From assembly GCA_020831765.1 (NCBI GenBank), contig JAFIFY010000056.1, positions 1-36,104 on the forward strand: a stretch of 36,104 nt of DNA, read 5' to 3'. Of this stretch, positions 752 to 36,104 are shown one piece after another (within the stretch, counting starts at the first letter, position 1; every line of letters begins with the position of its first letter). The position numbers were made by a program, and so were the translations under genes. The notes under the pieces were generated by a model, which saw only the letters and a list, made by a program, of their open reading frames with translations, was not told the origin of the DNA and searched no databases. This DNA is from Phycisphaeraceae bacterium. GTDB taxonomy: Bacteria > Planctomycetota > Phycisphaerae > Phycisphaerales > Phycisphaeraceae.

Positions 752-906
752 TGGGGGCCCATCAAAATTCCCGACATAACGGGTAGGGCGACCGGTGACA
801 TCACCATGCGCACCTTGAGTGGTCGGCGGGCGATCGTGTGTCGGAGGGGTATTCAACAGGGCATGGACGGGAAGCGGAATTCCAAGTTTCCCGGGAGGAG
901 GAAGCG

Positions 907-2733
907 ATGAGACTGTGGCATTTGAACGAAGCGCTACGGATCAGTGTGGCCTGCGCGGCGGTTGTGGGCATGACGCTGGTGACAACGCCGGCATGGGGCA
1001 ACCGTGATGCGGCCAACACGACCAATGCCGATCAACTCTGGCCGGGTGGAGCGCTTGGGTACAACCTCACCGGCGCAGGTGTGACGGTTGGAGTCTTTGA
1101 AGCCTTGGACAATGGCAACTGGCGCGTCCGCTCGACGCATGAGGCCTTTACGCACGGTCAGCCGGGCGGGGTCAGCCGCTTGGCGTTTCCGGCCGGGCAG
1201 TCCGGCGGGTTCTCAGGCCATTCCACCCATGTGGCCGGCACGATCGGCGGAGCGCATGTTCCGGGCCGGGCGCCCTTCTGGGGCATGGCGCCAGGTGTGG
1301 AGCTTTACAGTTACTCGGCATCGATGGTCGAGAGCCGGATGGCGGGCAACGTCGATGGCCTGGACATCACCAATCATTCGTATGGGATTCCGCGAGGCCT
1401 CTGGGAGGTGCGGGCGTGGAACATTCCCTCGGGGTTGGGTGGCGTTCAGACACGAAGCTATTCGACCTGGGAAGGCGAATGGGACATCATCCGGCACGAT
1501 CCAGCGCACGGGCGGTATGGCGCTCATGCTCGGGCGCTGGATACGGTGCTGGTGAATCAACCGAATCTGCTGAGCATCTGGGCGGCGGGCAACGAACGCG
1601 GATCGGCCGCCAATCGGTATACGGACCTTCACGGCGATGGGCGCTACGTGGCGCGGTTCAGCCAGAGCTACATCAACCAGACCGGCGTCGATGGCGTGGC
1701 GCTGGGCAACCGGTATTTCCTGATCAGCGCCCAGGACTACCCGCTACCCGGATTGAAGCCGGGGGGGTATGACAGTCTCACCGATCTGCAGACGGCCAAG
1801 AACTCGCTGGTGGTGGGCGCTGTCAATGATCACACATTCAGCGCACACAGCCCCGCCCTGATCCGAACGAGCACATTCACCAGCTACGGCCCGACCAATG
1901 ATGGTCGCCTGGGCATCGATGTGGTGGCCAACGGCACGACACTGCGCTCGGCGAGCAATCTCGGGGATGCGGTCTACATCTCCATGAGCGGCACATCCAT
2001 GGCAGCGCCCAATGCCGCGGGCACCGCAGCGCTGCTGCTGCAGCATTGGCGCGACTCGGCAGGGGGGTACACGCCTAATTCAGCTTCGATGAAGGGGCTC
2101 CTGATGCATACGGCTACCGATGTCATTCAGGATGGACAGATCGGGCCGGACTATCGCAGCGGCTACGGACTGATCAACGCCGTCGAGGCGGCACGGTTCA
2201 TCGATCACGCCGTTGCCTGGTCTGACGATTCGCTAAAGGATCACTTCCGAGAGGACAGATTGTCGCAGGGTGAAGCTTGGAGCATGGACCTGATGGCCGC
2301 CGGTGGGGCGCTCAAAGCTTCACTGAGCTGGCTCGACCCGGTTCCAAGTTTCCTGCAGAGCGGGCTCGACGATCGGCGTAGCGTGCTGGTCAACAATCTT
2401 GATCTCTGGATCACCGATGGGAACGGCACGGTTTATTTCCCCTGGACGCTGGATGTCGAGAATCCTGATGCGCCGGCGAAGCGTGACCAACCCAATCGCG
2501 TGGACAATTTCATCCAGGTCCTGATCGACGACCTGCCGCCACACTCGCTGCTGACCCTGAACATCGATCACTTCGGCCCGCTGCGCGGCGGTCAGCAGGA
2601 TTTCAGCCTGTTTGTATCCGGGGCATATGAGATGACCTCGGTGCCGGAGCCGGCTTCTCTGGCGCTGATGGTCCTGGGGGCTGCGGTCATGGGGTGCCGG
2701 CGACTCACCGCGTCGACCGCCACGAGCATGTAA
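907..2733 (+). CDS. Secreted S8 subtilisin-like peptidase with PEP-CTERM sorting signal
   Basis: A 608-residue exported serine peptidase. The ATG at 907 is chosen because GGGAGGAGGAAG lies just upstream and the product then begins with a signal peptide (hydrophobic core about residues 11-29, cleavage near PAWG). The frame is open upstream to a GTG at 838, but that would bury the signal. Visible S8 motifs are GHSTHVAG (catalytic His105), AAGNE (oxyanion Asn229) and SGTSMAAP (nucleophile Ser364). Where subtilases have the catalytic Asp, this protein reads VGVFEALDNG, with Glu65 at the expected place. The C-terminus is a PEP-CTERM tripartite tail: VPEP at 579-582, a hydrophobic helix, then CRR. 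The protein is therefore expected to be processed by an exosortase and retained at the envelope or surface. Substrate unknown. Confidence 0.9.
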   Translation: MRLWHLNEALRISVACAAVVGMTLVTTPAWGNRDAANTTNADQLWPGGALGYNLTGAGVTVGVFEALDNGNWRVRSTHEAFTHGQPGGVSRLAFPAGQSGGFSGHSTHVAGTIGGAHVPGRAPFWGMAPGVELYSYSASMVESRMAGNVDGLDITNHSYGIPRGLWEVRAWNIPSGLGGVQTRSYSTWEGEWDIIRHDPAHGRYGAHARALDTVLVNQPNLLSIWAAGNERGSAANRYTDLHGDGRYVARFSQSYINQTGVDGVALGNRYFLISAQDYPLPGLKPGGYDSLTDLQTAKNSLVVGAVNDHTFSAHSPALIRTSTFTSYGPTNDGRLGIDVVANGTTLRSASNLGDAVYISMSGTSMAAPNAAGTAALLLQHWRDSAGGYTPNSASMKGLLMHTATDVIQDGQIGPDYRSGYGLINAVEAARFIDHAVAWSDDSLKDHFREDRLSQGEAWSMDLMAAGGALKASLSWLDPVPSFLQSGLDDRRSVLVNNLDLWITDGNGTVYFPWTLDVENPDAPAKRDQPNRVDNFIQVLIDDLPPHSLLTLNIDHFGPLRGGQQDFSLFVSGAYEMTSVPEPASLALMVLGAAVMGCRRLTASTATSM

Positions 2734-3702: not shown

Positions 3703-4893
3703 TTACTCATCCAGATGCGAGGCCAGGCGATCGGCATGTTCGATCAGCCATCGGACCTTGCGTTCGACCATGCGGAGGATGCCGATTCCCTCCATGCGGC
3801 CGAAGTTTCCCGTGGCGGCGATGGGGATGGCCGCCTCGGCGACGAGGGCCTCGATCATCAGCCAGGGGATGGTTCGCAGCTCGGCTCGCGAGATCACAGC
3901 GCCGGGTGTGTGGTCGTAGGCTCGCAGAAACCGCTTGTATCGGCCTTCGTCGATATAGTCCGGCCAGGTTTCCGGATCATCACCGCCGCCGAGGATGGAA
4001 AACTGCAGGGCACCGTTGGCGATGTCGGTGACCCTTTGCTGAAGTCTGGCCGCATCGTAGTCGATCACCGCGACGACCTTGGATTTTCGAAACAGCATGT
4101 TGCCCGGGTGCCAGTCGGAATGGACGATCTGCATCGGCCAGTCGGTCATGCCGATTTCGTTGACCTTGCGCGCCGCATCGGTGTAGCTTTTTTCGAGGAA
4201 CGCGAGGGTCTGGGCCAGTTCACCGGCGCTGATGGGTGAAGGCTCGACGCGGTTGAGCCGTTCAAGGGTCTGAGGGATGAGCTTGAGCGAGGAAACGACG
4301 CTGCGCGCCGCGTGATAGCAGCCCCGAGGCGGCTCGTAATCCGGTTCGTAACCCAGCAGCAGCTTGTGGAACAGGGCCAGCGTATGGCCGCTCTCGGCGG
4401 TCGCTTCCAGCGAGTTGTCGTAGCTGGTGCCCTTGATGAACTCGAACAACTCGTAGATGCGCCCGCGGAATTGCAGCATCGAATTGTTTTCCGCCTTGGT
4501 GCCGATCAGGTGTGGCAGGGGGAACCGTCGCTCGGAGAGGAACATCTGAAGCCCGTGACAGAACGCGACCTTGAAGGGATCGTCTTTGCCGCGCGCCCGG
4601 CGTTTGAGGAGGAACAACCCCTCGCTGGACCGGATGATGAGCTTAGGCGCCTTGCGCGAGCCGCGGGGAAAATCCTCGATCGCCTCGATGATGCCCACAT
4701 CGTAATGCGAAAGCACCATGGCCAGTTCATGCGGATCAAACAGTTCGCGACCGTGGCTGTCGACGCGGGCACCGGTGACGCTTCCGGTACCCGATGGCGC
4801 GTGTACGCCCAATTCTTCGGTGTTCGGCAGCGAAGTTGGCGTCGGGTCCTGGCTCATCGGCATCCTGATGGGAGGTTCGCGAGGCGGCGTCAC
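3703..4893 (-). CDS. Aminoglycoside phosphotransferase (APH)/kinase-fold protein
   Basis: A 396-residue protein of the APH/choline kinase fold. HSDWHPGN (258-265) is the catalytic loop, with Asp260 as the base and Asn265 binding metal. IDYD (277-280) is the metal-binding DFG equivalent, and Lys97 in FLLKRR is the probable ATP-binding lysine. The fold phosphorylates a hydroxyl of a small molecule. The substrate could be a sugar, an amino alcohol or homoserine and cannot be told from the sequence. The GTG start at 4893 overlaps the yicC stop (GTGA), implying translational coupling. An in-frame ATG at 4863 is an alternative, and neither has a strong ribosome binding site. It is the last gene of the tpiA-secG-yicC group, so a metabolic rather than antibiotic-resistance role is more likely. 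Confidence 0.85.
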   Translation of the reverse strand: MTPPREPPIRMPMSQDPTPTSLPNTEELGVHAPSGTGSVTGARVDSHGRELFDPHELAMVLSHYDVGIIEAIEDFPRGSRKAPKLIIRSSEGLFLLKRRARGKDDPFKVAFCHGLQMFLSERRFPLPHLIGTKAENNSMLQFRGRIYELFEFIKGTSYDNSLEATAESGHTLALFHKLLLGYEPDYEPPRGCYHAARSVVSSLKLIPQTLERLNRVEPSPISAGELAQTLAFLEKSYTDAARKVNEIGMTDWPMQIVHSDWHPGNMLFRKSKVVAVIDYDAARLQQRVTDIANGALQFSILGGGDDPETWPDYIDEGRYKRFLRAYDHTPGAVISRAELRTIPWLMIEALVAEAAIPIAATGNFGRMEGIGILRMVERKVRWLIEHADRLASHLDE

Positions 4894-8434: not shown

Positions 8435-10138
8435 ATGGGATTGACCAGTTCATTGATGATCGGCCGTTCGGGCCTGATGAGCAGCCAGGCCGCGATCGAA
8501 GTGGCGGGCAATAACCTTGCCAACGCGACGAACCCGGCTTACCACCGTCAGGTGGCCAATCTGACCGGCATGGGCGTGCGCGAGATCGGGCAGGGGATGT
8601 TCGTGGGCCGGGGGGTGCAGCTTGAGTCGATCACCCGGGTCATTGATGAGGCATTGGAGCGGCGACTCCGGAACGCGATCAGCGACCAGGCCGGCACCCA
8701 GGCCCGCCAGGAATACCTCCAACGCATCGAGGCGATTCACAACGAATTCACCGACGTCGATCTGTCCAGCCATCTCAACCAGTTCTTCAACAGTTGGAGT
8801 GAACTGGCCAACCGGCCGGAAGACCTTTCGCTCAGATCTCTGGTCGTGGCCGAAGGCATGAAGCTGGGGGCCTATATTCAGCGGCAGTATCAATCGCTGA
8901 TCGACACGCGCGAGCAGCTCGACGCCTCGATCACGCAGTCCGGGGCGCGCGTCGCCGACATTCTGGATCAGTTGGCGGCGCTGAATAAATCCATCGTGGC
9001 CGCGGAGTCGGGCAGGGGCGGCGCTCACGATCTGCGGGATGAGCGCGACCGTCTGATGACGGAGCTGGCCGGATACATCGACATCACGACGGTCGAACAG
9101 GCCAACGGCGTCATTGACATCCACGTGGGTTCGACACCGATCCTGCTCAACGGCAACAATCGGGGATTCGAAGTTCGCCGGGAAACGATCGATGGAGACC
9201 TGTCCATCTCGCTGCACATCAAGGCCGATGGCACGGAACTGAGACCGGCATCCGGCCGTCTGGGGGCACTGATTCAGGCTCGCGAGCATGACATCGGTGA
9301 TGCGATGGAGAAGCTGGACAAGCTGGCCCACGAGCTGATCTACGAAGTCAATCGTATCCATACCGGCGGGCAGGGCATGCAGGGGCACACCAGCCTGACC
9401 GGTACCAACCGCGTGCTGGATACATCGCTTCCGTTGAACGATCCGGAGGCGGGTCTTGGATTCGAGCCGACGCACGGCAGCTTTCTGATCCACGTGACCC
9501 AGAAATCCTCATCGCATCGAAGCACGGTGCAGATTCCGGTGGACCTCGATGGCATCGGAGCTGACACCTCGCTCGACGGCCTGGCCGCGTACATCACCGC
9601 CAATGTCGATCACCTGACGGCCGCGGTCACATCCGATGGGCGTCTTCGTATGCAGACGAGCTCGGGCGATTTCGAGGTGAGCTTTTCCGATGACAGCAGC
9701 GGTGTTCTGGCCGCGCTGGGGGTCAACACGTTTTTCACCGGATCGAGCGCCCGTGACATGGATGTCCGCGCTGATCTTCAGGGCAACCTCCGGCTGCTCA
9801 ATGCCGGGCAGGAGCACCTCGCCGGCGACAACCGCAATGCGTTCGCGATCGAGGGGATTCGGGACAGGGCGATGGACCGGCTTGATGGCCTGAGCGTGAC
9901 GCAGTTCTGGAGCCGTCATGTCGAGGATCTGGCGGTCAAGCTCGGGCAGGCGAATCAGAGGCTCGAATCCGATCGGATCGTCACTGAAAACCTGACCAAC
10001 CAGCGTAATAGCTACAGCGGGGTGAACATCGATGAGGAAGCGATCAACCTGCTGACGTTCCAGCGTGCCTACCAGGGCAGCGCGCGGTTCATCTCCGTCA
10101 TTGATGAAATGTTCCAGACCCTGTTGGGCCTGGTGTAG
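8435..10138 (+). CDS. flgK: Flagellar hook-associated protein 1 (FlgK)
   Basis: A 567-residue protein forming the first hook-filament junction ring. The start is ATG at 8435 (MGLTSSLMIGRSGLMSSQ), giving a normal axial-protein N-terminus; the frame extends upstream but without axial-protein character. Residues 1-35 are the rod/hook N-terminal domain, including EVAGNNLANATNPAYHRQ. Residues about 80-190 are coiled-coil D1, with a variable domain in the middle. The C-terminus (INLLTFQRAYQGSARFISVI, ending FQTLLGLV) is the Flg_bbr_C domain that packs against the N-terminus. It follows a candidate sigma-54 promoter and lies 13 bp before flgL. Confidence 0.95.
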   Translation: MGLTSSLMIGRSGLMSSQAAIEVAGNNLANATNPAYHRQVANLTGMGVREIGQGMFVGRGVQLESITRVIDEALERRLRNAISDQAGTQARQEYLQRIEAIHNEFTDVDLSSHLNQFFNSWSELANRPEDLSLRSLVVAEGMKLGAYIQRQYQSLIDTREQLDASITQSGARVADILDQLAALNKSIVAAESGRGGAHDLRDERDRLMTELAGYIDITTVEQANGVIDIHVGSTPILLNGNNRGFEVRRETIDGDLSISLHIKADGTELRPASGRLGALIQAREHDIGDAMEKLDKLAHELIYEVNRIHTGGQGMQGHTSLTGTNRVLDTSLPLNDPEAGLGFEPTHGSFLIHVTQKSSSHRSTVQIPVDLDGIGADTSLDGLAAYITANVDHLTAAVTSDGRLRMQTSSGDFEVSFSDDSSGVLAALGVNTFFTGSSARDMDVRADLQGNLRLLNAGQEHLAGDNRNAFAIEGIRDRAMDRLDGLSVTQFWSRHVEDLAVKLGQANQRLESDRIVTENLTNQRNSYSGVNIDEEAINLLTFQRAYQGSARFISVIDEMFQTLLGLV

Positions 10139-10151
10139 TGAGGATCCAGCC

Positions 10152-12131
10152 ATGAGCGGCATGCCCCCCTCGGCCATCGGCCGAACCTCAACCCTGATGA
10201 AGGCGGACCTGCTCAGCAGCGCGCTGCGCAAGACGCAGTCCGAACTGATGCGGCGTGAGATTGAAATGTCCACGCTGATGAAGGTGCATCGACCATCGGA
10301 TGCCCCGGCGGATACGGCCAACATTCAGTACCTGCAGGGCATGATGGAAAAGCGACGGCAGTGGGACCGTAATCTCGAGCATGCTTCGGGCATGCTCGGG
10401 GTCACCGATGTCGCGCTTGGGGATGTCACGGACATCCTGCTGGATGCCAAGGGCATCGCCTCGGGCCAGATCGGCGTGGGCTCCAACGCCGACACGCGTC
10501 TGAGTCAGGCGGCGATCATCGATGGTCAGCTTCAGGCAGTGATGGAGATCGCCAACCGCAAGTACGCGGGCGTGAGCCTGTTCGGCGGTCTGGCCGGTGG
10601 CCGCGCCGGGGAGATGTTTGAATCGTTCATGGGCGGTGTGCGTTATCGGGGGGATACATCGAATCTGGCCACACAGATCGGCCTCAACCGCCCGCTTGAA
10701 ATCAATTCCAATGGCATGGATGCCTTCGGCGCCGTGTCGGCCCGCGTCAGTGGAATCGCCGATCTTCAGCCGCTGCCGGCGGCGAATACGAGGCTCAGCG
10801 ATCTGGATGGAGCGCAGGGGCTGGGCGTCCGCCGTGGTGAGATTCACCTGCGGGTCAACGGCGTGGAAACGATGGTGGACCTGACCTCCGCCGAGACGGT
10901 GGGCGATGTGGCCGTTCGAATCCATGCCGCGATCGAGGCCATCGATCCGACCGCCGGAGGCTTCGCCTTCGTTCCTGGACAGAGTGGCTTCAGCTTTACG
11001 GCGAGTCCGGGCAGCCTGATCCGCATCGAAGACCCGGCCGGCGGCCGAATGGCCAAGGACCTTGGCATTGACATGGCCGTTTCGGCGACGACGGCTCCGG
11101 GCGATCCGATCAATCCGCGATTGACCATGCTCACACGACTGAGCGACCTTGAGCATCCGGTGGACTTGTCCGGGGGACTGAAGATCACGGTTGGCGCGAC
11201 CACGCGAATCGCCGATTTCAGCTCCGCCCAGACCATCCAGGACCTGGTCAACGAGATCAACCGACTGGACATGGGCTTGCGCCTGGAGATCAATCAGGCC
11301 AAGCGTGGTCTTTCGCTTTACACGGATGTGAGTGGTGTGGAGGTCTCCATCGGAGAGAACGGCGGGGGCACGACCGCCCGTGACCTTGGTCTGCGTTCCT
11401 TTGGCGAGGACACATTGCTGGCCGATTTTCAGTTCGGGCTTCGAGGGGTGACACGCGTGCAGGGCGAGGACGATTTCCGGGTGGAGTTGAAGGATGGGCG
11501 GGCGTTCGAGGTCAACATGGATGGGGCGATCACCGTTGGTGATGTGCTTGAGAAGATGCGTCAGTCGGCCCTGGCGGCCGGGATCGCCATCGGTGATCCG
11601 GGTAATGCGGCTTCGGAATTGAATATCGGACTGGCGTTAGATGGCAATGGTTTCCGCCTTGAGGACAACACCACCGGTGGCGGGGAGTTCGCCGTTCGAA
11701 CGTTGGGCCTGAGCCTTGCGGCGGTGGATCTTGGCATCGCGCACAACGCCGGCTCGGGTGATGTGATCCAGGGCAAGGATATGGCCAAGGTCCGCGTCGA
11801 AAGCGTGTTCACCCATTTGATTCATTTGCGTGATGCGCTGGCCACGAATGATGAACGTGGCATCGTGTTTGCTGGAGATCGGATGGAAGGGGACATCGAG
11901 CAACTGGCCCGAGTGCGTGCCGAAGTCGGCGTACGCGGGCAACTGGTTGCCCAGCACCAGGAAAGGTCCGCTGACTTGAACGTTCAGGAACACAGCCAGT
12001 TGAGTCTCCTGCGGGATGCGGACATGACCGAGTCGATCAGCCGTTACATGCAGTTGACACAGCAACTGCAAGCCACGATGCAGACCGGCTCCCTGGGGTT
12101 GCAGACGAGTTTGCTTGATTTCCTGCGCTAG
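10152..12131 (+). CDS. flgL: Flagellar hook-associated protein 3 (FlgL), enlarged with three internal repeats
   Basis: The second hook-filament junction protein. At 659 residues it is about twice the length of enterobacterial FlgL (about 317). The flagellin-like N-terminus (residues about 12-150, with HRPSDAPADTANIQYLQ) and C-terminal helix (about 600-659) are standard. Between them lie three related segments of roughly 90 residues, at about 215-305, 328-415 and 430-530. Each has a beta-hairpin, a V.D..E-type helix, and an ending such as AKDLGI, ARDLGL or VRTLGL. These resemble the flagellin hook IN motif and would form surface-exposed domains. The ATG at 10152 has GAGGAT upstream and lies 13 bp after flgK, so the two are co-transcribed. 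Confidence 0.93.
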   Translation: MSGMPPSAIGRTSTLMKADLLSSALRKTQSELMRREIEMSTLMKVHRPSDAPADTANIQYLQGMMEKRRQWDRNLEHASGMLGVTDVALGDVTDILLDAKGIASGQIGVGSNADTRLSQAAIIDGQLQAVMEIANRKYAGVSLFGGLAGGRAGEMFESFMGGVRYRGDTSNLATQIGLNRPLEINSNGMDAFGAVSARVSGIADLQPLPAANTRLSDLDGAQGLGVRRGEIHLRVNGVETMVDLTSAETVGDVAVRIHAAIEAIDPTAGGFAFVPGQSGFSFTASPGSLIRIEDPAGGRMAKDLGIDMAVSATTAPGDPINPRLTMLTRLSDLEHPVDLSGGLKITVGATTRIADFSSAQTIQDLVNEINRLDMGLRLEINQAKRGLSLYTDVSGVEVSIGENGGGTTARDLGLRSFGEDTLLADFQFGLRGVTRVQGEDDFRVELKDGRAFEVNMDGAITVGDVLEKMRQSALAAGIAIGDPGNAASELNIGLALDGNGFRLEDNTTGGGEFAVRTLGLSLAAVDLGIAHNAGSGDVIQGKDMAKVRVESVFTHLIHLRDALATNDERGIVFAGDRMEGDIEQLARVRAEVGVRGQLVAQHQERSADLNVQEHSQLSLLRDADMTESISRYMQLTQQLQATMQTGSLGLQTSLLDFLR

Positions 12132-15923: not shown

Positions 15924-15997
15924 CGGGGTGTAGCGCAGCTTGGTAGCGCGTCTCGTTCGGGACGAGAAGGTCGGAGGTTCAAATCCTCTCACCCCGA
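15924..15997 (+). tRNA. tRNA-Pro (anticodon CGG)
   Basis: The acceptor stem CGGGGTG pairs with CACCCCG, with discriminator A at 15997. The D-arm is GCGC/GCGC. The anticodon stem TCTCG/CGAGA encloses loop TTCGGGA, anticodon CGG. The T-arm is GGAGG-TTCAAAT-CCTCT with one G-T pair. All arms are intact; CCA is not encoded. The 3' end overlaps the stop of the serine recombinase gene on the other strand, marking the probable junction of an integrated element. Confidence 0.95.
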
Positions 15998-17475
15998 CTT
16001 TTCTTCAAAAAGGGCCGTTCGACGAGAAAATCGAACGGCTTTCTTTTTGTCAACACAAGACTTACGTCGCTAACCTTACGGTTCAAACTGACCAGCTCCA
16101 GCAACTCCCGTTTCTGGGCCGAGTTTGAACCGCGCCACAATTCCACCAGATTCTGGCTGAATTCGAACGTCGCCAGCGCCACTTCGCCGCAGGCGGGGTC
16201 GAACTTGGCGGCCTCGTCGAGTTGGCGCTCGACCTCTTCGAGCTGCGCCTTCAGGTCGAACGATTTGATCTGGAACGTCTGCTCGTCGATGGAGCCGGCC
16301 AGGTAACCGTTGAGCAGGCGGTCCTGCATGTTGACCAGCTCGGTGCGGCGCTTGGTGAGGATGCGCTTCTGCTCGGCCTGGACGGTGCCGACCTGGCTAA
16401 AGCTCGCATCCAGCGCCTTGCGGAACCACTGAGCGTGCCGATCGGGCAGCCTGACGGCGTCCAGTTCCTTCTCGATGGCGTGATTGATCTCGGCCTCGCG
16501 CCAGCGAATCCTCGGGTGCCCGGCGTCGGGATGGTTGTTGCCGCACCGGTAGTAGACGTGCTCGTTGCAGCCGCCGCCGTTGAGTTTTCGGCGGATGAGC
16601 TCACCTGTCATGGCAAAGTCGCAGCAGGCGCAACGGAGGATGCCTCCGGAGAACGCGATGTCGGGGTTGCCCGTCCGCCGGTTGCGGCCGTGGAGGATAT
16701 CCTGGCAGATGTTGAACAACTTTCGGTCGATCAGCAGGTGGTAGCGGCCTTCGAATACCTGGCCGTTGCGCTTGAGCTCGCCAATGTAGAAGCGGTTGTT
16801 GAGGATGTATGACAGCGCCGTGCGATGGAAACGCGGTTGGCTGGGCTGATAGGTGTGCCCCTCGGCGGCGAGCTGGTCGGCCAGGCTCTTGAAGGTGAAT
16901 CGCCCACTGGCATAAAGCTCGAAGATTCGGACGACCGTCTTGGACTTCGCCGGATGCGGCACGACTGGTTCGTTGCGGTCGTCCACGTTCATGTACCCGT
17001 ACGGCGCGAGACCCGTCGGCCAGCCTTGCCGTACCTTCTCGTCCATGCCCTTGATGACCTCGGTGCGGAGGTTGTCCGAGTAATACTGGGCCACCGCCGC
17101 CATCACGTTGAACGACAGAGCGCCCGCAGCACCGGGGCCGAACTGATTTTCGACGAAGGTCAATTGCACGCCGCAGGTATCTTCCAGTTCCTGCAGCCGA
17201 ACCGCGTCACGCATGTTCCGGCAGACCCGGTCCAGCTTGTGGGCGAAGATGGCGTTGATCTTCTCACGCTTGGCGTTGGTCTTGACCCACTTGAACATCT
17301 GGTTGAACGCGACCCGATCGGCACCACGCTTGGCCGACTCGGCGACCGCGAACTCGCGGACAATGGTCCAGCCCGCCTTCGCCGCCTTGTCGCGCATGGC
17401 GCGGGTTTGTGCGTCGATGGAATAGCCTTCACGCTGTTCGCGGGACGACACTCGTGCCCAGGCCACTACGTTCAT
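15979..17475 (-). CDS. Large serine recombinase (integrase)
   Basis: A 498-residue site-specific recombinase that probably integrates the element. ARVSSREQREGYSIDAQ holds the catalytic serine (Ser10), and AHKLDRVCRNMRD matches the resolvase active-site region. A Recombinase domain (GWPTGLAPYGY onward), a Cys-rich zinc ribbon (CACC near the LRCACCDF segment, plus later Cys residues) and a coiled-coil tail follow. The ATG at 17475 overlaps the upstream gene's stop as ATGA. The last codons read through a terminator-like hairpin and the tRNA-Pro 3' end, so the extreme C-terminus may be supplied by host sequence after integration. Confidence 0.93.
   Translation of the reverse strand: MNVVAWARVSSREQREGYSIDAQTRAMRDKAAKAGWTIVREFAVAESAKRGADRVAFNQMFKWVKTNAKREKINAIFAHKLDRVCRNMRDAVRLQELEDTCGVQLTFVENQFGPGAAGALSFNVMAAVAQYYSDNLRTEVIKGMDEKVRQGWPTGLAPYGYMNVDDRNEPVVPHPAKSKTVVRIFELYASGRFTFKSLADQLAAEGHTYQPSQPRFHRTALSYILNNRFYIGELKRNGQVFEGRYHLLIDRKLFNICQDILHGRNRRTGNPDIAFSGGILRCACCDFAMTGELIRRKLNGGGCNEHVYYRCGNNHPDAGHPRIRWREAEINHAIEKELDAVRLPDRHAQWFRKALDASFSQVGTVQAEQKRILTKRRTELVNMQDRLLNGYLAGSIDEQTFQIKSFDLKAQLEEVERQLDEAAKFDPACGEVALATFEFSQNLVELWRGSNSAQKRELLELVSLNRKVSDVSLVLTKRKPFDFLVERPFLKKSRGERI
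16006..16049. terminator. Bidirectional terminator-like hairpin behind tRNA-Pro
   Basis: GCCGTTCGA (16014-16022) and TCGAACGGC (16031-16039) make a perfect 9-bp stem with an 8-nt loop. The plus strand then has TTTCTTTTT, and the minus strand has CCCTTTTT. It fits termination of tRNA-Pro but lies within the recombinase coding frame. Confidence 0.7.
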
Positions 17476-17777
17476 TGGTCGTTGCCCTCCCTTCGCAATC
17501 GCAGCAGCAACTCGCCCATTCGTTTGACGTTCATGAGAATCTCCACGGCTTCGTCTTCGCTGATCGGGCGGCCATACGAATCCGACCAGAGCTCGATGGT
17601 CTCGGCCAGCAGCTCGTCGGAAATCCATGCCACCGACAGTGGCCGCCCCCGGCCCTGCAAGTGGCGCTCTCCGACACCGGCGACAGTTACCTCATCCGGG
17701 GCAGTAAATCCAGTCGACTCAGAAAGATTTTCGGCCGGCGGGTCGAGCGTGCATGTGCATGATTCGCGGTCATTCAT
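17472..17777 (-). CDS. Small conserved protein of the recombinase operon
   Basis: A 101-residue protein. The C-terminal half (SDELLAETIELWSDSYGRPISEDEAVEILMNVKRMG) resembles, from memory, a recurrent block in small proteins of mobile elements and planctomycete genomes that pairs a GRPxSxxEA motif with two helices. The N-terminal third is disordered. Both ends overlap neighbours as ATGA (start with the sigma-like gene, stop with the recombinase), so the three genes are translationally coupled. It could be a recombination accessory factor, but there is no direct evidence for this. Confidence 0.75.
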   Translation of the reverse strand: MNDRESCTCTLDPPAENLSESTGFTAPDEVTVAGVGERHLQGRGRPLSVAWISDELLAETIELWSDSYGRPISEDEAVEILMNVKRMGELLLRLRREGNDQ

Positions 17778-28479: not shown

Positions 28480-28749
28480 TCGCACACGTTGGCCCGTGTC
28501 GCGGCCGGCTGCCCAGGTGGTACGACGCGACCACCCACCGCCCGTCGGCCACAGGTGCCAACGTGGGCGAAATGCCCGCCATCTGCCACTGTGGCAGCGC
28601 GGCATGGTTCCTTCCTGGCGAACCTGCCGGAGATGGCACGGGAACGCGTCGGCGTGTGAAACAGAGTTTGTTTGCGCTGTCCGGTTTTGCGCCGGCGGCA
28701 CCCCGGGATTCTGATTCCCCCAACCCCCAACGCATACGGAGATGCATGC

Positions 28750-29925
28750 ATGACGACCGCAACCTACGACGTCCAGCTCCGCAAGATCGACGACATCCGC
28801 CCCTACGAGCGCAACCCGCGCCTCAACGACAAGGCGGTGGATGCCGTGGCCGAATCGCTGCGCGAGTTCGGTTTCCGCCAGCCCATTGTGATCGATGCCG
28901 ACGGCGTCATCATCGTCGGCCACACCAGGTGGAAGGCAGCCAGGCAACTGGGGCTGGCCAAAGTACCCGTCCATGTGGCGACCGACCTGACGCCCGAACA
29001 GATCAGGGCGTACCGCATCGCGGACAACAAGACCGGCGAGATCGCCGAGTGGGACCTTGAGATTCTGCCCATCGAGCTCAACGAGCTGCGTGAGCTTGCT
29101 TCCGGGGGCGGGTTCGACATGGGCGTGCTGGCCTTCGATGAAGAGGAACTGGGCAAGCTGCTGAACAGCGCCCAAGGCGTGACCGAGGGCCTGACCGATC
29201 CCGACGAGGTGCCCGAGCCGCCGGATGATCCGGTCACCCAGCGCGGCGACATCTGGGTGTTGGGCGACCACCGGCTCATGTGCGGCGACAGCGGCGGCGT
29301 GGCCGACCTGGACCGGCTGCTCGCTGCCGGGGGCGGCAACACCATCGATCTGGTCAATATGGACCCGCCGTACAACGTGAAGGTGGAGCCGCGCAGCAAC
29401 AACGCCATCGCCGCCGGCATCACCTCGTTCTCACGGCGCGAAGACCTGCAGTGCGAGCGGTCGACCAGCGAGCGCGGCAAGAAGGATCGAGCCCGGCTGG
29501 CGGCCAAGCAGGCGAATACCGAGACATCAGCGGGAACATCGCGCAACAAGAAGGGTCTGCTTCATCATCAGAGCTTTGATGTGGCCCGGCTGGGAGAACG
29601 TAAGGCCACGCACACGAAGATGCGAGCCAAGGACCGCCCGTTGGAGAACGACTTCGTCACGGACGAGGCATTCGACGAGATGCTGCTGGCCTGGTTCGGC
29701 AACGCCTCGCGTGTGCTCAAGCCCGGCGGATCGTTCTACATCTGGGGCGGATACGCGAACCTGGGCAACTACCCCGGCCCGCTCAAGGCCTGCGGGCTCT
29801 ACTTCAGCCAGGGCATCGTGTGGGACAAGCAGCACCCGGTGCTGACGCGCAAGGACGGGATGGGTAGCCGTGTGGAGCGGGTCGCGTTCGCCTGGCGGCG
29901 GGGTGAGGTGCGGGCGGCGGCGTAG
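28750..29925 (+). CDS. ParB-domain DNA methyltransferase, C-terminally truncated
   Basis: A 391-residue product. The N-terminal ParB-like domain (VQLRKIDDIRPYERNPRLND, then IVGHTRWKAA at 57-64) is fused to a beta-type N4/N6 methyltransferase whose catalytic motif IV is MDPPYNV (204-210). KPGGSFYIWGG and the WDKQHP..TRKD segment follow as usual. In this family the SAM-binding motif I (FxGxG, as in DLFGGSGST) lies C-terminal to these, but the frame stops at 29925 soon after FAWRRGE. About 100 residues, including motif I, are missing, so methylation activity is doubtful. The stop lies 20 bp from the convergent DUF262-HNH cassette. Confidence 0.85.
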   Translation: MTTATYDVQLRKIDDIRPYERNPRLNDKAVDAVAESLREFGFRQPIVIDADGVIIVGHTRWKAARQLGLAKVPVHVATDLTPEQIRAYRIADNKTGEIAEWDLEILPIELNELRELASGGGFDMGVLAFDEEELGKLLNSAQGVTEGLTDPDEVPEPPDDPVTQRGDIWVLGDHRLMCGDSGGVADLDRLLAAGGGNTIDLVNMDPPYNVKVEPRSNNAIAAGITSFSRREDLQCERSTSERGKKDRARLAAKQANTETSAGTSRNKKGLLHHQSFDVARLGERKATHTKMRAKDRPLENDFVTDEAFDEMLLAWFGNASRVLKPGGSFYIWGGYANLGNYPGPLKACGLYFSQGIVWDKQHPVLTRKDGMGSRVERVAFAWRRGEVRAAA

Positions 29926-31648: not shown

Positions 31649-32781
31649 GCCTTCCTCCAACGAATGAACAGACGCTTAAACGTCTCCTTGCCTTTTAGGT
31701 ACGAGCCGCGTCCATACACACCGTTGGGGTCTTGGCCGATACCTCGATTGCTTCCAACAATCTCGAACTGGTCCGGATTGTATTTATCAAGGAACGTGAT
31801 CGGGACACCCATGACACCGCGGTAATCACTGGGAATCGCATCAACGAATGGGACGTCGATCGCGTCGTAGTTCTCGTAACGGTCATAGGCCCGCTTACCC
31901 TTGATCTCCTTGTGTTTACTGAACCGCAGGTTCTCTGCCATCGTCATGCATTCGAGCCTCTGATGCCGACGCCCATGATCGAGGTTCGTGAACCACATGA
32001 TGCTGCCCATGCTGAAATACTTCACGCCGTCCACAGTCTTCTTTCGTGATTCAGTTTGAATGTCGTAGTGGTCTTTCACCTGGAACCACTTCGTGCCACC
32101 GTTGTCAACGCCCAGCCACATCTTGTTGTCCCTGATGAGCGGAAAGATCTCCTTGTAGATGATCGCGTTCTGGTGCCCAATGATCAGGAACTTCTTCCCA
32201 TACTCGTCGAGCTGCGCGACGTACTCCCGGAACAGCGAGAACGGCGGGTTGGTTACGACGATATCCGCCTGTTCCAGGTACTCGACGCACTCGGCGCTGC
32301 GGAAGTCGCCGCCGGCGTATTGGACGTCGGGTTTGAGAGCTCTGCGAGCGGCCTTGTTGCGCTTGAGGAAGAGCTTGACGTCTTCGATGTTGGCCGCGCC
32401 GTCGTTGTTCTCGTCCTTCACGTGGTCAATGACGACCGCAATCGCCTTGGGCTTCTGGCGATTACCGTTTCCGGGGGCGTTGTATTCGTCGAACAGGGAG
32501 AGCTGCCCGGCGATGGGCGAGCCGTCGTAGCTGGTGGTGATGAGCTTCTTGAGGCCGAGCTTGTTGAAGTTGGCGGCGAAGTACTTGAAGAAGTTGCTCT
32601 CGAACGGGTCATCGCAGTTGCAGTAGACGACCTTGTTGCGGAAGGTGTCGGGGTCGAATTCGAGGTAAGCTTCGACCTCCTTCTGGATGTCGATGTACTG
32701 GGTGTAGAACTCGTCCTGCTTGGCGGCCTTGGCGGCGTGGAGCGAGCGGTTGAGTGGCTTATTTTGAATCTTCTGGCTCAT
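31645..32781 (-). CDS. EcoRI-type adenine-specific DNA methyltransferase
   Basis: A 378-residue methyltransferase. KQDEFYTQYIDIQKEVEAYL (21-40) and VYCNCDDPFESNFFKYF (52-68) are hallmarks of the EcoRI MTase family, with an atypical SAM site (CDDPFESNF). DIVVTNPPFSLFREYV (173-188) contains catalytic motif IV NPPF. C-terminal MGVPITFLDKYNPDQFEIVG is the usual closing block. It should form N6-methyladenine, protecting host DNA from the partner nuclease. The ATG at 32781 opens a minus-strand operon with the next two genes. The cassette is visibly less GC-rich than its surroundings. Confidence 0.9.
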   Translation of the reverse strand: MSQKIQNKPLNRSLHAAKAAKQDEFYTQYIDIQKEVEAYLEFDPDTFRNKVVYCNCDDPFESNFFKYFAANFNKLGLKKLITTSYDGSPIAGQLSLFDEYNAPGNGNRQKPKAIAVVIDHVKDENNDGAANIEDVKLFLKRNKAARRALKPDVQYAGGDFRSAECVEYLEQADIVVTNPPFSLFREYVAQLDEYGKKFLIIGHQNAIIYKEIFPLIRDNKMWLGVDNGGTKWFQVKDHYDIQTESRKKTVDGVKYFSMGSIMWFTNLDHGRRHQRLECMTMAENLRFSKHKEIKGKRAYDRYENYDAIDVPFVDAIPSDYRGVMGVPITFLDKYNPDQFEIVGSNRGIGQDPNGVYGRGSYLKGKETFKRLFIRWRKA

Positions 32782-32789
32782 GAGACCCT

Positions 32790-32798
32790 GTGGCGCAA
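32790..32798 (-). repeat. 9-bp inverted repeat, right flank of the cassette
   Basis: GTGGCGCAA, inverse of TTGCGCCAC at 29929-29937, lies nine bases before the methyltransferase start. The 273 bp from 32782 to 33054 otherwise hold no gene I can support. Confidence 0.4.
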
Positions 32799-32964
32799 GT
32801 ACGTCGTTGTTTGCCTCAGTCGCTGGACACCGCGTCAAGCAGGCAAAGCTTCCGACTCGGCATGGTCGCCTTGCGCCCGCGCAAAATCAAATGGACCGAT
32901 GCCCCGGCCACACCAATCCGTGCTCTGAAAGCCTGCTGGCCGCTGCTACCCGCACGAAAACTTG

Positions 32965-32990
32965 AAGCGGCCCTTTACGAATGGCCGCTT
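32965..32990. other. Stem-loop in the non-coding stretch upstream of the next phage gene
   Basis: AAGCGGCC (32965-32972) pairs with GGCCGCTT (32983-32990), an 8-bp stem with a 10-nt loop. The minus-strand side continues CAAGTTTTCG, a weak T-run. Confidence 0.4.
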
Positions 32991-33054
32991 TCGCTGGAAA
33001 TAAGTTGGGAGACGGGCGTGGTGCCCGTGGGCAAACCCCTTCAAGGAGACCGCT

Positions 33055-33573
33055 ATGGATCGGATCGGACTGACGTCGGACGAGTACGTGGACCTCAAGG
33101 TCCGGCCCCGCCAGGGCGCGGACGCCGCCTTCAAGGAGGCGGCGGAGCAGGAGCGGGCGGAGATGTTCCCGATGACGCTGACAGCTGCATCGAGCCACCT
33201 ACGGTCGCGTGGGTACGACTGCCGACCGGAAATGCTGGAAGTGCTGGTGCGCAACGAGGTTGTGAAGCCCGCCAGCCCGGACGCCTGGTCGCAGGCGGAC
33301 GTGGACGCCGCAGCCGAGCACTTCGAGGACTGCGACATGTTCACGCCGTATGCCGCCATGTGCCAGACGCTTGGGTGCCGGTACGTGGACTTCCTGCGGC
33401 CGCTGCGCGAGGCCGCCGAGGCCGAGTCGGCCAGGTACGGGCGGCGGGTGCCGGACGACGATCAGTACTTCGTCATGCATCGGATGCCGCCTCGCGGCGA
33501 GAGCCCGGCGATCCTCAACTTCACGCTCTGCGATGACATCCGGGAGCGTCTTGAACGTGGCGAGGAGGTGTAA
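33055..33573 (+). CDS. Phage protein of unknown function
   Basis: A 172-residue acidic protein from the ATG at 33055, with TCAAGGAGACCGCT upstream. The middle (EMLEVLVRNEVVKPASPDAWSQADVDAAAEHFE) looks like a helical MerR-like or terminase-small-like DNA-binding region but matches neither clearly. It ends directly at the next gene's ATG. Function unassigned; located with the second sigma-like gene and the capsid gene. Confidence 0.75.
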   Translation: MDRIGLTSDEYVDLKVRPRQGADAAFKEAAEQERAEMFPMTLTAASSHLRSRGYDCRPEMLEVLVRNEVVKPASPDAWSQADVDAAAEHFEDCDMFTPYAAMCQTLGCRYVDFLRPLREAAEAESARYGRRVPDDDQYFVMHRMPPRGESPAILNFTLCDDIRERLERGEEV

Positions 33574-34149
33574 ATGGACACCTCACCGCAGAAAATCGAA
33601 CTGACGCCCGATCTGCTCGAATACGCCCGGGCGGTGGCGCTCAAGGAGGCTCCCAAGCACTGCGGGCCGGGTGTGTCCTTCGACGACGCTGCCCAACAGG
33701 CAGTGCTTCAGTTGATTCGCAAGCCGCCCAAGTACGACCCCACGCGTGGTGCTGACGTGAAGACGTTGATCTACACCATCGTGCAGCGTGCGGTCATCAA
33801 GTTCGCCACCCGTGAGAAGAAGACGCTCAATCAATACCCCGAGCAGGCGAACGACCGATCGCCCCTCGAACCGACCGACGATCAGTCGCAGTTTCATCGT
33901 CGCATGACTGGGGCAGGGCCTACCGAGCACGAGGCGCGGCGGGCCCTGGTAGAGGACATGCTTCGATTCATCGACAACGAGGAAAGCCGGGCCATGTGCT
34001 GGCTGTTGCTCCAATGCAATGGCAACTACAGCGAGGTGGCGCGACGGCTGAAGTTGAGCGAGGGCACGGTGCGCTACCGCCTGAAGATGCTGGCTCCCAA
34101 GCTGCGGGCGGCGGGATTCAAACCACCTTGGGAAGGAGACGACACGTGA
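33574..34149 (+). CDS. Sigma-70-like factor adjacent to the capsid gene
   Basis: A 191-residue protein. The N-terminal half (LEYARAVALKEAPKHCGPGV, then FDDAAQQAVLQLI, YDPTRGADVKTLIYTIVQRA) is sigma region 2, with the polar DDAAQ helix and tryptophan-poor core. The C-terminus (CNGNYSEVARRLKLSEGTVRYRLKMLAPKLR) is sigma region 4 HTH. It may drive late phage gene expression, a rare arrangement in tailed phages. The ATG follows the previous stop directly, after GAGGAGGTG. Its TGA overlaps the GTG start of the capsid fusion. Confidence 0.85.
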   Translation: MDTSPQKIELTPDLLEYARAVALKEAPKHCGPGVSFDDAAQQAVLQLIRKPPKYDPTRGADVKTLIYTIVQRAVIKFATREKKTLNQYPEQANDRSPLEPTDDQSQFHRRMTGAGPTEHEARRALVEDMLRFIDNEESRAMCWLLLQCNGNYSEVARRLKLSEGTVRYRLKMLAPKLRAAGFKPPWEGDDT

Positions 34150-36041
34150 CGGCAACCATGACGGAGAACCTGCTGCTGGCCGCGCCTGAAGTGGCCATCG
34201 AGGCTGGCGCGGATCGGCGTAAGCCGCGCATCAACGTGGTGGCCTACACCGGCGGGCTGATGGCGGTGCCAGGCTGGGGCCCGGTCGCCATCGATCTCAC
34301 CGGCCTCGACGCGAACGGGCAGGTGCCGCTGCTGGCCGATCACAACGCCACGGTGTCCGGCGTGGTGGGCCACGGCGAAGCGCACGTTCAGGGCGACCGA
34401 CTGATCGTCGCCGGCGTCATGTCGGGTACGGGCGAGGCGGCGCGGCACATCGTGGACATGACGGCCGGCGGCTTTGCATTCCAGGCGAGCGTGGGCGTGG
34501 AGCCGGTCGAGCACGAGCGGGTGCAAGCGGGCGAAAAGGTACGGGTGAACGGTCGGCTGCTGTCGTCGGCGCGTGGGTTCGCGCTGATCAAGGCGGGCCG
34601 GCTTCGGGAAGTGAGCATCACGCCGCTGGGCGCGGACGCGGGCACGTCCGTGGCCATCGCGGCATCACGTCAAGGTAAGGAGGTCTCTGTGACCACGACG
34701 GAAGTTCAGAACATCGACGAGGCGGCGGTTCGTGCCGATGAGCGGGATCGCCTCAAGCGGATCGAGGCGACGTGCGCTGGGCCGAGGGACGGCTGGGGCG
34801 CGAACCAGGAGCGGGTGGACCAGCTCAAGGCATCGGCGCTGGCCGGCGAGATCAGCGAGAACGATCTGTCGGCGCAGATGCTGACGATTCTGCGGGAGTC
34901 GCGGCCGAAGCTGCACTTCAACACCATGCGGCCGGCGCAGATCGTCAGCCACGCCACGGCGCTGGAAGCGGCGCTGCTGGCACGGATGGGCATGACGGAA
35001 CTGGGCGAAAAGACGCTCGGCCCACTGGCGATGGAGCACGGTGCGCAGCTCAAGGCGAACCATGCCCTGGACCTGTGCCGGGCGGCGCTGATGTACGAGG
35101 GCCACGAGGTGCCGCGCGGGCGCGAGGAGATGGTCAAGGCGTCGCTGAGCACCACCAGCCTGCCGGTGGCGCTGGGCAACCTGGCCAACAAGGTGCTGCT
35201 GGACAGCTACAACGAGAGCCCGGCCACCTGGCGGTCGTTCTGCGCCGTGCGGTCGGTGAGTGATTTCAAGAAGAACACCGCCATCAGGCCGTCGTTCAGC
35301 ACCCCGCTGGAGCCGGTCGCGCCTGGCGGCGAGATCAAGCATGGCACCGTGGGCGAGTGGCTCGCTGAATACCAGGTGGACACCTTCGGCAAGATGCTCA
35401 GCATCGACCGGCGCGACATCGTCAACGACGATCTCTCGGTGTTCGATGAGACGGCGCGGACGCTCGGTCGCAGCGCCATGCGGAAGATCAGTGACCTGGT
35501 GTACTCAGTGCTGCTGGCCAACGCCGGCTCGTTCTTCTCCGCCGGCAACGGCAACTACTTCGATGGTGCGGACAGCGCGCTGACCTTCGATGGACTGGCG
35601 AAGGCGATCACGCTGATGCTGGTGCAGCGCGACGACGAGGGCAACGATCTTGACCTGCGGCCGCGCACGCTGCTGGTGCCGCCGGAACTGCAGACCGCCG
35701 CCAAGGCGCTGCTGGAGAGCGAGTACCTGCAGCAGATCGCCGAGAAGGTGCCCACCGGCAACAGCCTGCGGCGGGCGGTGAGCATCGAGGTCGAGCCGCG
35801 CCTGAGCAACGATGCCAAGTTCGGTTCCAAGGCCAGCGATCGGCACTGGTATCTGTTCAGCAGTCCGGCGGCGGTGCCGATGGTGGTCGGCTTCCTGCAG
35901 GGCCAGCAGAGCCCGACCGTCGAGTTCTTCGGCCTCGATCACCAGCCCAACCGCCTGGCGGTGACGTGGCGGGTCTATCACGACTTCGGCACGGCGCTGG
36001 TCGATCCGCGTGCGGCGGTGCGCAGCAAGGGCGAGGCCTGA
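34146..36041 (+). CDS. Prohead protease-major capsid protein fusion
   Basis: A 631-residue fusion. Residues about 25-172 are a HK97-type prohead protease: PLLADHNATVSGVVG (His66), FQASVGVEP (Ser115) and REVSITPLGAD. Residues about 182-300 are a helical scaffold-like delta region, and about 320-631 the HK97-fold/Mu gpT-like major capsid protein. The GTG at 34146 has GGAG nine bases upstream and overlaps the sigma-like gene's TGA; ATG at 34158 is the alternative. Cleavage between protease and capsid would be expected during maturation. An internal start at 34689 could make scaffold-capsid alone. Confidence 0.88.
   Translation: MTATMTENLLLAAPEVAIEAGADRRKPRINVVAYTGGLMAVPGWGPVAIDLTGLDANGQVPLLADHNATVSGVVGHGEAHVQGDRLIVAGVMSGTGEAARHIVDMTAGGFAFQASVGVEPVEHERVQAGEKVRVNGRLLSSARGFALIKAGRLREVSITPLGADAGTSVAIAASRQGKEVSVTTTEVQNIDEAAVRADERDRLKRIEATCAGPRDGWGANQERVDQLKASALAGEISENDLSAQMLTILRESRPKLHFNTMRPAQIVSHATALEAALLARMGMTELGEKTLGPLAMEHGAQLKANHALDLCRAALMYEGHEVPRGREEMVKASLSTTSLPVALGNLANKVLLDSYNESPATWRSFCAVRSVSDFKKNTAIRPSFSTPLEPVAPGGEIKHGTVGEWLAEYQVDTFGKMLSIDRRDIVNDDLSVFDETARTLGRSAMRKISDLVYSVLLANAGSFFSAGNGNYFDGADSALTFDGLAKAITLMLVQRDDEGNDLDLRPRTLLVPPELQTAAKALLESEYLQQIAEKVPTGNSLRRAVSIEVEPRLSNDAKFGSKASDRHWYLFSSPAAVPMVVGFLQGQQSPTVEFFGLDHQPNRLAVTWRVYHDFGTALVDPRAAVRSKGEA
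34676..34691 (+). promoter_or_regulatory. Internal ribosome binding site and GTG start in the capsid fusion gene
   Basis: TAAGGAGGT (34676-34684) is a full complement of the 16S anti-Shine-Dalgarno. An in-frame GTG follows at 34689-34691 (codon 182), five bases after GGAGG. It falls exactly at the boundary between protease and scaffold/capsid parts, where VTTTEVQNIDE begins. Confidence 0.7.
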
Positions 36042-36104
36042 TCCTGACTGGTGGCTGCGGGCAACGGCGGGGCCGGGGCCCTGCCCACCCCGCCCCCCCC
36101 CCCC
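36042..36104. other. GC-rich tail ending in a poly-C run
   Basis: After the capsid stop the sequence is G/C-rich without a gene and ends in a run of 12 C. This may be the contig edge or a sequencing artefact. Confidence 0.6.

What the first reader, a model, noticed from the sequence alone, without database searches (positions are those of the whole stretch)
34146..36041. Internal translation start dividing the protease-capsid fusion
A textbook TAAGGAGGT with GTG five bases after GGAGG lies in frame at codon 182, exactly at the domain boundary. A nested start would yield scaffold-capsid in excess over the fused protease, comparable in logic to lambda C/Nu3. It would solve the stoichiometry problem of a 1:1 fusion.
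Basis: partly seen in the sequence, partly recalled or inferred. Interest (0 to 1): 0.65.

Follow-up and report, generated by a model that had tools for sequence, protein, structure and literature searches.

The report
Second start inside fused capsid gene
A phage gene that joins a head-maturation protease to the shell protein carries a second ribosome start between the two parts, and the same start recurs in most relatives examined, so one gene probably makes two proteins: protease-free shell subunits and some that carry the protease.

Summary
TAAGGAGGT (34676-34684) and GTG (34689-34691), codon 182 of the fused ORF 34146-36041, lie in the low-confidence linker between an assemblin/T4-gp21-like protease and a helical scaffold plus HK97-fold capsid. 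It is the strongest Shine-Dalgarno (SD) of 51 in-frame starts. Codon-shuffled linkers (0/500) and synonymous shuffles (0/2000) do not reach the observed values. ClpP-type fusions agree (13 of 15 clusters). Against: 12 of 61 clusters fail, some of them close relatives, and for the window alone the synonymous test is uninformative. It works like lambda C/Nu3 and Mu I/Z, but the nested product here is scaffold plus capsid. Initiation and an excess of the short product are inferred; no protein was measured. New variant of a known kind.

The parts
34146..36041 (+). Fused ORF: prohead protease - helical scaffold/delta domain - HK97-fold major capsid protein, 631 aa, GTG start that overlaps the stop of the gene before it (GTGA)
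   Evidence: Translation; NCBIfam NF045541 and NF045540, PF25209, PF10124, phrog_4523
34133..34138 (+). AAGGAG, SD of the full-length start at 34146
   Evidence: Sequence; duplex -9.4 kcal/mol
34227..34661 (+). Protease domain (residues 28-172), assemblin/T4 gp21-like; His66 and Ser115 invariant in 44 sequences
   Evidence: Models; fold comparison; alignment
34665..34715 (+). Low-confidence linker (residues 174-190) that holds the internal SD and start
   Evidence: pLDDT under 50
34676..34684 (+). Internal Shine-Dalgarno TAAGGAGGT
   Evidence: Sequence; duplex -12.3 kcal/mol, strongest of 51 in-frame starts
34689..34691 (+). Internal GTG start, codon 182
   Evidence: Sequence; SD plus start at the matching place in 49 of 61 clusters
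34689..36041 (+). Predicted nested product: scaffold-capsid, 450 aa, (M)TTTEVQNIDE...
   Evidence: Inference from the site and its conservation
34719..35135 (+). Helical scaffold/delta region (residues 192-330)
   Evidence: Model secondary structure; the role as scaffold is inferred
35136..36026 (+). Major capsid domain (residues 331-627), HK97 fold
   Evidence: PF25209, 147 bits against a cut-off of 27; fold matches

Best explanation
The gene is read from two in-frame starts. Initiation at 34146 gives the full protease-scaffold-capsid chain. Independent initiation at the internal SD and GTG (34676-34691) gives a 450-residue scaffold-capsid chain with the same C-terminus. The two co-assemble through their common parts, so the procapsid is built largely from protease-free subunits with a fraction carrying a tethered protease inside; that protease then removes the scaffold and itself during maturation. 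Shown by sequence evidence: the site, its place between the domains, and its selection across the family. Inferred: that ribosomes start there, that the short form predominates, and the co-assembly and cleavage steps.
For: Strongest SD of 51 in-frame starts. SD>=4 plus ATG/GTG at the same place in 49 of 61 clusters of fused ORFs against 13.2 expected from other windows of the same ORFs; SD>=5: 31 vs 2.9; SD>=6: 14 vs 0.5. Without the window, 500 codon shuffles of the linkers reach at most 26, 13 and 6 clusters where 48, 30 and 13 of 60 are seen. Synonymous shuffles of the 7 codons before the first junction ATG: 0 of 2000 reach the observed sums, 48 of 60 clusters tested. The encoded residues differ between lineages, and the SD core falls in all three reading phases (30, 14, 5). 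SD motifs of 5 or more bases are followed by an in-frame start in 61 of 88 cases at the junction but 96 of 659 elsewhere. Local mRNA is less structured than the ORF mean in 48 of 49 clusters (window -11.7 vs -21.0 kcal/mol). In relatives at about 80% identity the start is ATG; in the window that codon is ACC, and GTG one codon upstream has a stronger SD. Fused ORFs first dropped by my length rule and scored later: 12 of 14 with SD>=4, or 10 of 11 after removing doubles. ClpP-type fusions: 13 of 15 clusters against 3.4 expected.
Against: 12 of 61 clusters do not reach the threshold; L004, L013, L067 and L085, at 52-57% identity to the window, have no in-frame start with an SD in the linker, so the element is dispensable in some lineages. 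Part of the SD>=4 count is chance (13.2 expected). For the window itself the SD is no stronger than its amino acids would give (P 0.75), and in the close clade the synonymous test is modest (7 of 2000 by energy, 12 of 2000 by match length). The low mRNA structure is largely low local GC; against shuffles of equal composition the effect is small (mean z 0.38, P 7e-4). SD strength at the N-terminal start region and at the internal site is similar (mean best match 4.6 vs 4.3, 57 clusters), so sequence gives no proof of an excess of short form. The exact-match measure scores 0 for the annotated internal start of lambda nu3 and 5 for Mu Z, so it is not a full guide to real starts. No expression, ribosome-profiling or mass-spectrometry data were available.
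Confidence: 0.85

Rival explanations
1. Fossil of gene fusion: the site is the leftover ribosome-binding site of a once separate scaffold-capsid gene and is no longer used.
For: The site lies where a separate HK97-type protease gene would end; in HK97 protease gp4 and capsid gp5 are adjacent separate genes.
Against: It persists in proteins only 30-40% identical while linker residues and length change, with selection on the bases (0 of 2000). I saw no intact separate protease-capsid pair among the loci that I checked for one (L076-L080, L098, L103).
Confidence: 0.04
2. Pause site: the SD-like motif slows ribosomes between two domains to help folding, without initiation.
For: It sits between two folded domains. 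That SD-like motifs can slow ribosomes is recalled and disputed.
Against: A pause needs no start codon and no fixed spacing. Here 49 of 61 clusters have ATG (43) or GTG (6), with the GGAGG core ending 5-8 nt before it in 43 of 49, and SD motifs are tied to in-frame starts at the junction (61 of 88) far more than elsewhere (96 of 659).
Confidence: 0.04
3. Protein-level constraint: a purine-coded, charged linker (Lys, Glu, Gly, Arg) with a Met is kept for protein reasons, and the SD is a by-product.
For: SD codons often encode Lys-Glu or Gly. In the ClpP-type class the peptide EF..M around the site is itself conserved. For the window alone the amino acids suffice to give the SD (P 0.75).
Against: Across the family synonymous shuffles (0 of 2000) and codon-order shuffles (0 of 500) fall short; residues differ between lineages; the window and five other clusters use GTG (Val).
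Confidence: 0.04
4. The family uses the start, but this particular gene, in a prophage cut off at the end of a contig, does not make a working phage, so the site here is inherited and idle.
For: The contig ends 63 bases after the gene; no tail or portal gene was identified in the window, and not every ORF was scanned.
Against: The ORF is intact with invariant His66 and Ser115, and its SD is among the strongest of the clusters (8-base match).
Confidence: 0.05

Closest known systems
Phage lambda genes C and nu3
   Same: In-frame internal start inside the protease gene, shared stop, nested assembly protein (record annotation; frame checked).
   Different: Lambda C is an S49-family peptidase, the nested product is scaffold only, and capsid protein E is a separate gene. 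The nu3 start has a weaker SD (-6.9 against -12.3 kcal/mol, no exact match of 3 bases or more).
Phage Mu genes I and Z, and PaMx73 gene 27
   Same: Scaffold started in frame inside the protease gene (Mu record). PMC4378225 (passages read) reports a putative internal Val177 start with an SD in PaMx73: a GTG-type internal start near the same position.
   Different: The major head protein T is a separate gene.
Protease-capsid fusions: NCBIfam NF045540/NF045541, Paracoccus prophages, Salmonella phage Gifsy-2
   Same: Protease and major capsid protein in one ORF: PMC6536676 (passages read) reports 17 Paracoccus prophages with one. The Gifsy-2 'tripartite capsid gene' is seen here only as a cited title; its content is recalled.
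   Different: No internal start is mentioned in what I could read; the Gifsy-2 paper is not held. The window scores below the cut-off of both models.
Herpesvirus UL26 and UL26.5 (recalled)
   Same: Protease-scaffold and a nested scaffold with the same C-terminus, the protease of the same fold class (fold comparison).
   Different: Recalled: the short form comes from an internal promoter, not an internal ribosome start, and the capsid protein is separate.

Membership tests
NCBIfam NF045541, prohead protease/major capsid protein fusion | Curated score cut-off of 525 bits | tested here: not met
   279.1 bits, E 7.7e-83, residues 47-629: clearly related, below the cut-off
NCBIfam NF045540, ClpP-like prohead protease/major capsid protein fusion | Curated score cut-off of 475 bits | tested here: not met
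   200.1 bits, residues 176-629 only: the protease part does not match
Pfam PF25209 Phage_capsid_4 | Gathering score of 27 bits | tested here: met
   147.4 bits, residues 331-627
HK97-fold major capsid proteins | HK97 fold | tested here: met
   Foldseek PDB matches at E about 1e-7 to 1e-6 to encapsulins and phage capsids including D3
Assemblin-like prohead proteases (T4 gp21, herpesvirus protease) | Shared protease fold | tested here: met
   VIA-align Z 10.0 to T4 gp21 and up to 9.0 to herpesvirus proteases, next unrelated fold about 5. Foldseek alone is weaker: best E 2.2e-3, gp21 at 0.21
Assemblin-like prohead proteases (T4 gp21, herpesvirus protease) | Catalytic Ser and His present | tested here: met
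   His66 and Ser115 invariant in 44 sequences; their catalytic role is assigned from recalled motifs, the third residue was not tested
Lambda C/Nu3-type nested protease and scaffold genes | In-frame internal start with SD after the protease, same stop | tested here: met
   conserved in 49 of 61 clusters
Lambda C/Nu3-type nested protease and scaffold genes | Nested product is scaffold only | tested here: not met
   The nested frame 34689-36041 includes the capsid domain
Lambda C/Nu3-type nested protease and scaffold genes | Short product observed | not testable with these tools
   No protein or ribosome data

The most novel reading that the evidence does not exclude
An internal ribosome start between protease and scaffold is an ancestral, near-general element of the fused protease-scaffold-capsid genes of tailed phages, held in two classes with unrelated proteases (assemblin-type and ClpP-type). 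Genes recorded as one 'prohead protease/major capsid fusion' would then encode two proteins. Most of the shell would come from the internal start, and the full-length chain would be a minor, protease-bearing shell subunit that builds the protease into the lattice instead of packaging it separately.
Probability: 0.65. Interest if true: 0.72.

Novelty: new variant of a known kind. Interest (0 to 1): 0.63.

Why it matters
Fused protease-capsid genes pose a stoichiometry puzzle: a shell of hundreds of subunits would carry hundreds of proteases. A conserved internal start would solve it, would correct the annotation of a widespread gene family (a match in 106 of 400 sampled genomes of the window's order), and would predict the true N-terminus of most capsid precursors. 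It can be tested directly by peptide mapping of virions or procapsids.

Tried and rejected
The first alignment suggested that distant homologues mostly lack the start. This was wrong for most of them: their start lies upstream of a long Pro/Ala-rich linker, and an unbiased scan found it.

Split protease | capsid gene pairs: with my first ORF rule 41 of the matched loci gave ORFs under 560 aa; with a corrected rule 26 remain, 16 of them cut by the end of the stretch held. The ten others are L008, L076-L079, L098, L101, L103, L212 and L256. I checked L076-L080, L098 and L103 for a protease with a profile: only L098 has one, in a copy broken by frameshifts. L008, L101, L212 and L256 were not checked.

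Energy-only SD scoring over-credits GC-rich sequence, so an exact-match measure was used beside it or instead from then on. That measure misses a known case: lambda nu3 scores 0. The rule 'first ATG' picks a codon other than the likely one in L046 and L043; it was kept as it stood, and still does so for L046 and L261. No Rfam family in 32000-36104.

Rows dropped before counts: 275 of 276 records held gave a match; 208 nonredundant ORFs of 560 aa or more were aligned; 5 without Ser/Thr at the anchor column were left out, giving 203. The rule wrongly lost 15 fused ORFs, which are not in the 61 clusters; scored afterwards, 12 of 14 have SD>=4 (10 of 11 after removing doubles), L182/L193 do not, and in L267 the anchor was not found. 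In one search, 12 of 60 clusters had no ATG in the tested range and were not tested. In one search one of 86 ORFs lacked the anchor Gly; the two failing clusters are L112 and L117, and L117 has its SD+ATG at codon 212.

Literature: ten searches listed no paper that I recognised as reporting an internal start in a protease-scaffold-capsid fusion; of listed papers I read passages only of those. The one paper with all six terms is PMC4378225, on protease-scaffold genes. The library lacks most subscription papers.

Full report
OBSERVATION. The window ends in a 631-codon ORF, 34146-36041, whose GTG start overlaps the stop of the previous gene. TAAGGAGGT lies at 34676-34684 and GTG at 34689-34691, five bases after GGAGG, in frame at codon 182. 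Of 51 in-frame ATG/GTG codons it has the strongest duplex with the 16S tail, -12.3 kcal/mol against -9.4 for the gene's own start. None of 487 equal-length stretches elsewhere in the ORF holds a start as good. The host 16S end carries ACCTCCT.

WHAT THE GENE IS. Residues 331-627 match Phage_capsid_4 (147 bits, cut-off 27). The whole protein matches the NCBIfam fusion model NF045541 (279 bits, cut-off 525) and phrog_4523 'major head and protease protein'. AlphaFold2 on 44 sequences (mean pLDDT 77.7, pTM 0.50) gives a beta-rich domain at 28-172, a low-confidence linker at 174-190, helices from 192, and a capsid domain. The protease alone (pLDDT 83.9) aligns best to T4 gp21 (Z 10.0) and herpesvirus proteases (Z up to 9.0), with the next unrelated fold near Z 5; Foldseek by itself is weaker, best E 2.2e-3. 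His66 and Ser115 are invariant in the 44 sequences. The capsid part finds HK97-fold shells. The internal start therefore sits in the linker between protease and scaffold.

CLOSE RELATIVES. Fifty-seven ORFs above 430 bits, in 20 clusters at 80% identity, were examined. In most the protease ends in (V)AIAAS; after it residues and linker length vary, but an in-frame ATG with a purine-rich SD follows in most. By a fixed rule (first ATG; for the window its GTG) 16 of 20 clusters have a start, and their SDs beat those of 241 control ATGs of the same ORFs (P 4e-5 by energy, 3e-7 by longest match). Four of 20 lack it: L004, L013, L067 and L085. In relatives at about 80% identity (L009, L010, L038) the start is ATG. 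In the window that position is ACC, the SD codons AAG GAG sit at the same place as in L039, and GTG one codon upstream has a better SD. I read this as turnover that keeps the function (inference).

WHOLE FAMILY. Homologues came from 392 genomes of the phylum (64 with a match), 400 of the order (106), genome contigs, viral contigs and named phages (of which 12 records were fetched). 208 nonredundant full-length ORFs were aligned; 203 have Ser/Thr at the protease anchor and form 61 clusters at 70% identity. In codons +15 to +45 after this anchor an in-frame ATG/GTG with an SD match of at least 4 bases occurs in 49 of 61 clusters (expected 13.2, sd 3.1, from sliding windows of the same ORFs); at least 5 in 31 (2.9); at least 6 in 14 (0.5). 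ATGs with SD>=5 pile up at +20 to +29 codons (24 of 61 clusters' sites counted there). Counting single ORFs, 181 of 203 have at least 4 and 137 at least 5. Fifteen fused ORFs lost by my first rule were scored later: 12 of 14, or 10 of 11 distinct genes, pass SD>=4.

IS IT THE BASES OR THE PROTEIN? Leaving the window out, shuffling the codon order in the linkers gives means of 17.7, 6.3 and 1.9 clusters where 48, 30 and 13 of 60 are seen, 0 of 500 shuffles reaching any of them. Keeping the protein and redrawing synonymous codons, 0 of 2000 draws reach the summed SD energy (z -4.9) or the summed match length (z 4.5), on the 48 of 60 clusters with an ATG in range. The residues upstream differ between lineages. 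The SD core is in phase 2 in 30, phase 0 in 14 and phase 1 in 5 of 49 clusters, so one conserved peptide cannot explain all, though most share a phase. For the window alone the synonymous test is uninformative (P 0.75), and in the close clade it is modest (7 and 12 of 2000).

START OR PAUSE? SD motifs of at least 5 bases are followed by an in-frame start at 4-13 nt in 61 of 88 cases at the junction and in 96 of 659 elsewhere (overlapping motifs are counted singly, so they are not independent). The GGAGG core ends 5-8 nt before the start in 43 of 49. The 60 bases around the start are less structured than the ORF mean in 48 of 49 clusters; for the window -11.7 against -21.0 kcal/mol. Much of this is lower GC (0.54 against 0.63); against shuffles of equal composition the effect is small but present (z 0.38, P 7e-4).

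HISTORY. On a capsid tree of the 61 clusters the 12 without a scored start lie singly or in pairs near the tips and need 9 changes (shuffled mean 11.3, so slightly clustered). This fits an ancestral element lost several times, but the tree is not rooted. Some of the 12 are perhaps missed rather than absent: L117 has AGGAG and ATG at codon 212, and L108 and L110 have GGGGA and ATG.

OTHER CLASS. In fusions with a ClpP-type protease, 86 ORFs in 15 clusters, the start is found in 13 of 15 (expected 3.4), with SD>=5 in 8 (0.96) and SD>=6 in 4 (0.18); in these 13 it lies 26 codons after the Gly of GFAD. There the flanking peptide (EF..M) is itself conserved and no synonymous test was run, so the evidence is weaker than for the assemblin class.

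CONTROLS. The annotated internal starts of lambda nu3 and Mu Z have duplex energies of -6.9 and -7.4 by the same measure, the window -12.3; by longest exact match they score 0, 5 and 8. So the exact-match measure can miss a known internal start. In HK97 protease and capsid are separate genes.

MECHANISM. Best reading: two nested products, protease-scaffold-capsid and scaffold-capsid, co-assembling so that a minority of subunits carries the protease inside the shell. Shown: the site, its place, its conservation and its selection. Inferred: initiation, ratio, co-assembly, cleavage. SD strength at the N-terminal start region (mean best match 4.6) and at the internal site (4.3) is similar in 57 clusters, the internal one being higher in 22 and equal in 15, so sequence alone does not prove an excess of the short form.

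KNOWN OR NEW. Internal starts of scaffolds inside protease genes are known: lambda and Mu records and PMC4378225, passages read. Protease-capsid fusions are known: PMC6536676, passages read, and the Gifsy-2 'tripartite' gene, title and reference only. Their combination, an internal start as a family-wide element of the fused genes, did not appear in my ten searches, in a library that lacks most subscription papers. I therefore call it a new variant of a known kind.

Noticed in passing
window 15979-17628 (-) to 36104: A large serine recombinase (Resolvase + Recombinase + zinc ribbon), then AAA, helicase, primase-like and ParB-methylase genes, suggests a prophage from about 16 kb to the contig end; the contig stops 63 bases after the capsid gene in a run of C.
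   Followed up: partly
window 33574-34149; L120 1870-2523 and 4701-6449; L039 5099-6775: Unusual gene order: a sigma-70-like gene lies directly before the capsid gene (window, L120), and a primase/helicase-like gene lies shortly after it (L039, L120).
   Followed up: partly
window 28672-29925: ParB-like domain fused to a DNA methylase domain, as reported for Paracoccus phages (PMC6536676, passages read).
   Followed up: no
L006/L007 (G000:C69) and L008 (G000:C105): The same genome holds a second, distant fused protease-capsid gene with its own CAGGAG and ATG about 37 codons after the protease anchor, and a capsid fragment.
   Followed up: partly
L076, L077, L078, L079: Capsid homologues in ORFs of 354-413 aa with no protease match in the stretch held. 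The window's capsid model has encapsulins among its top PDB matches. Possibly shells of another kind, or remnants.
   Followed up: partly
34146-36041 and relatives L039, L025, L131: All four score 277-289 bits against the NCBIfam cut-off of 525 for NF045541, so this branch would be missed by that model.
   Followed up: no
L098 (G525:C1:2071700-2075700): A broken copy: protease and capsid parts lie in one frame with several stops and out-of-frame sequence between them.
   Followed up: no
window 838-2733; 3703-4893 (-); 10065-12131: Host-type genes: a subtilase with a PEP-CTERM motif, an APH-family phosphotransferase, and a flagellar hook-associated FlgL-like protein.
   Followed up: no
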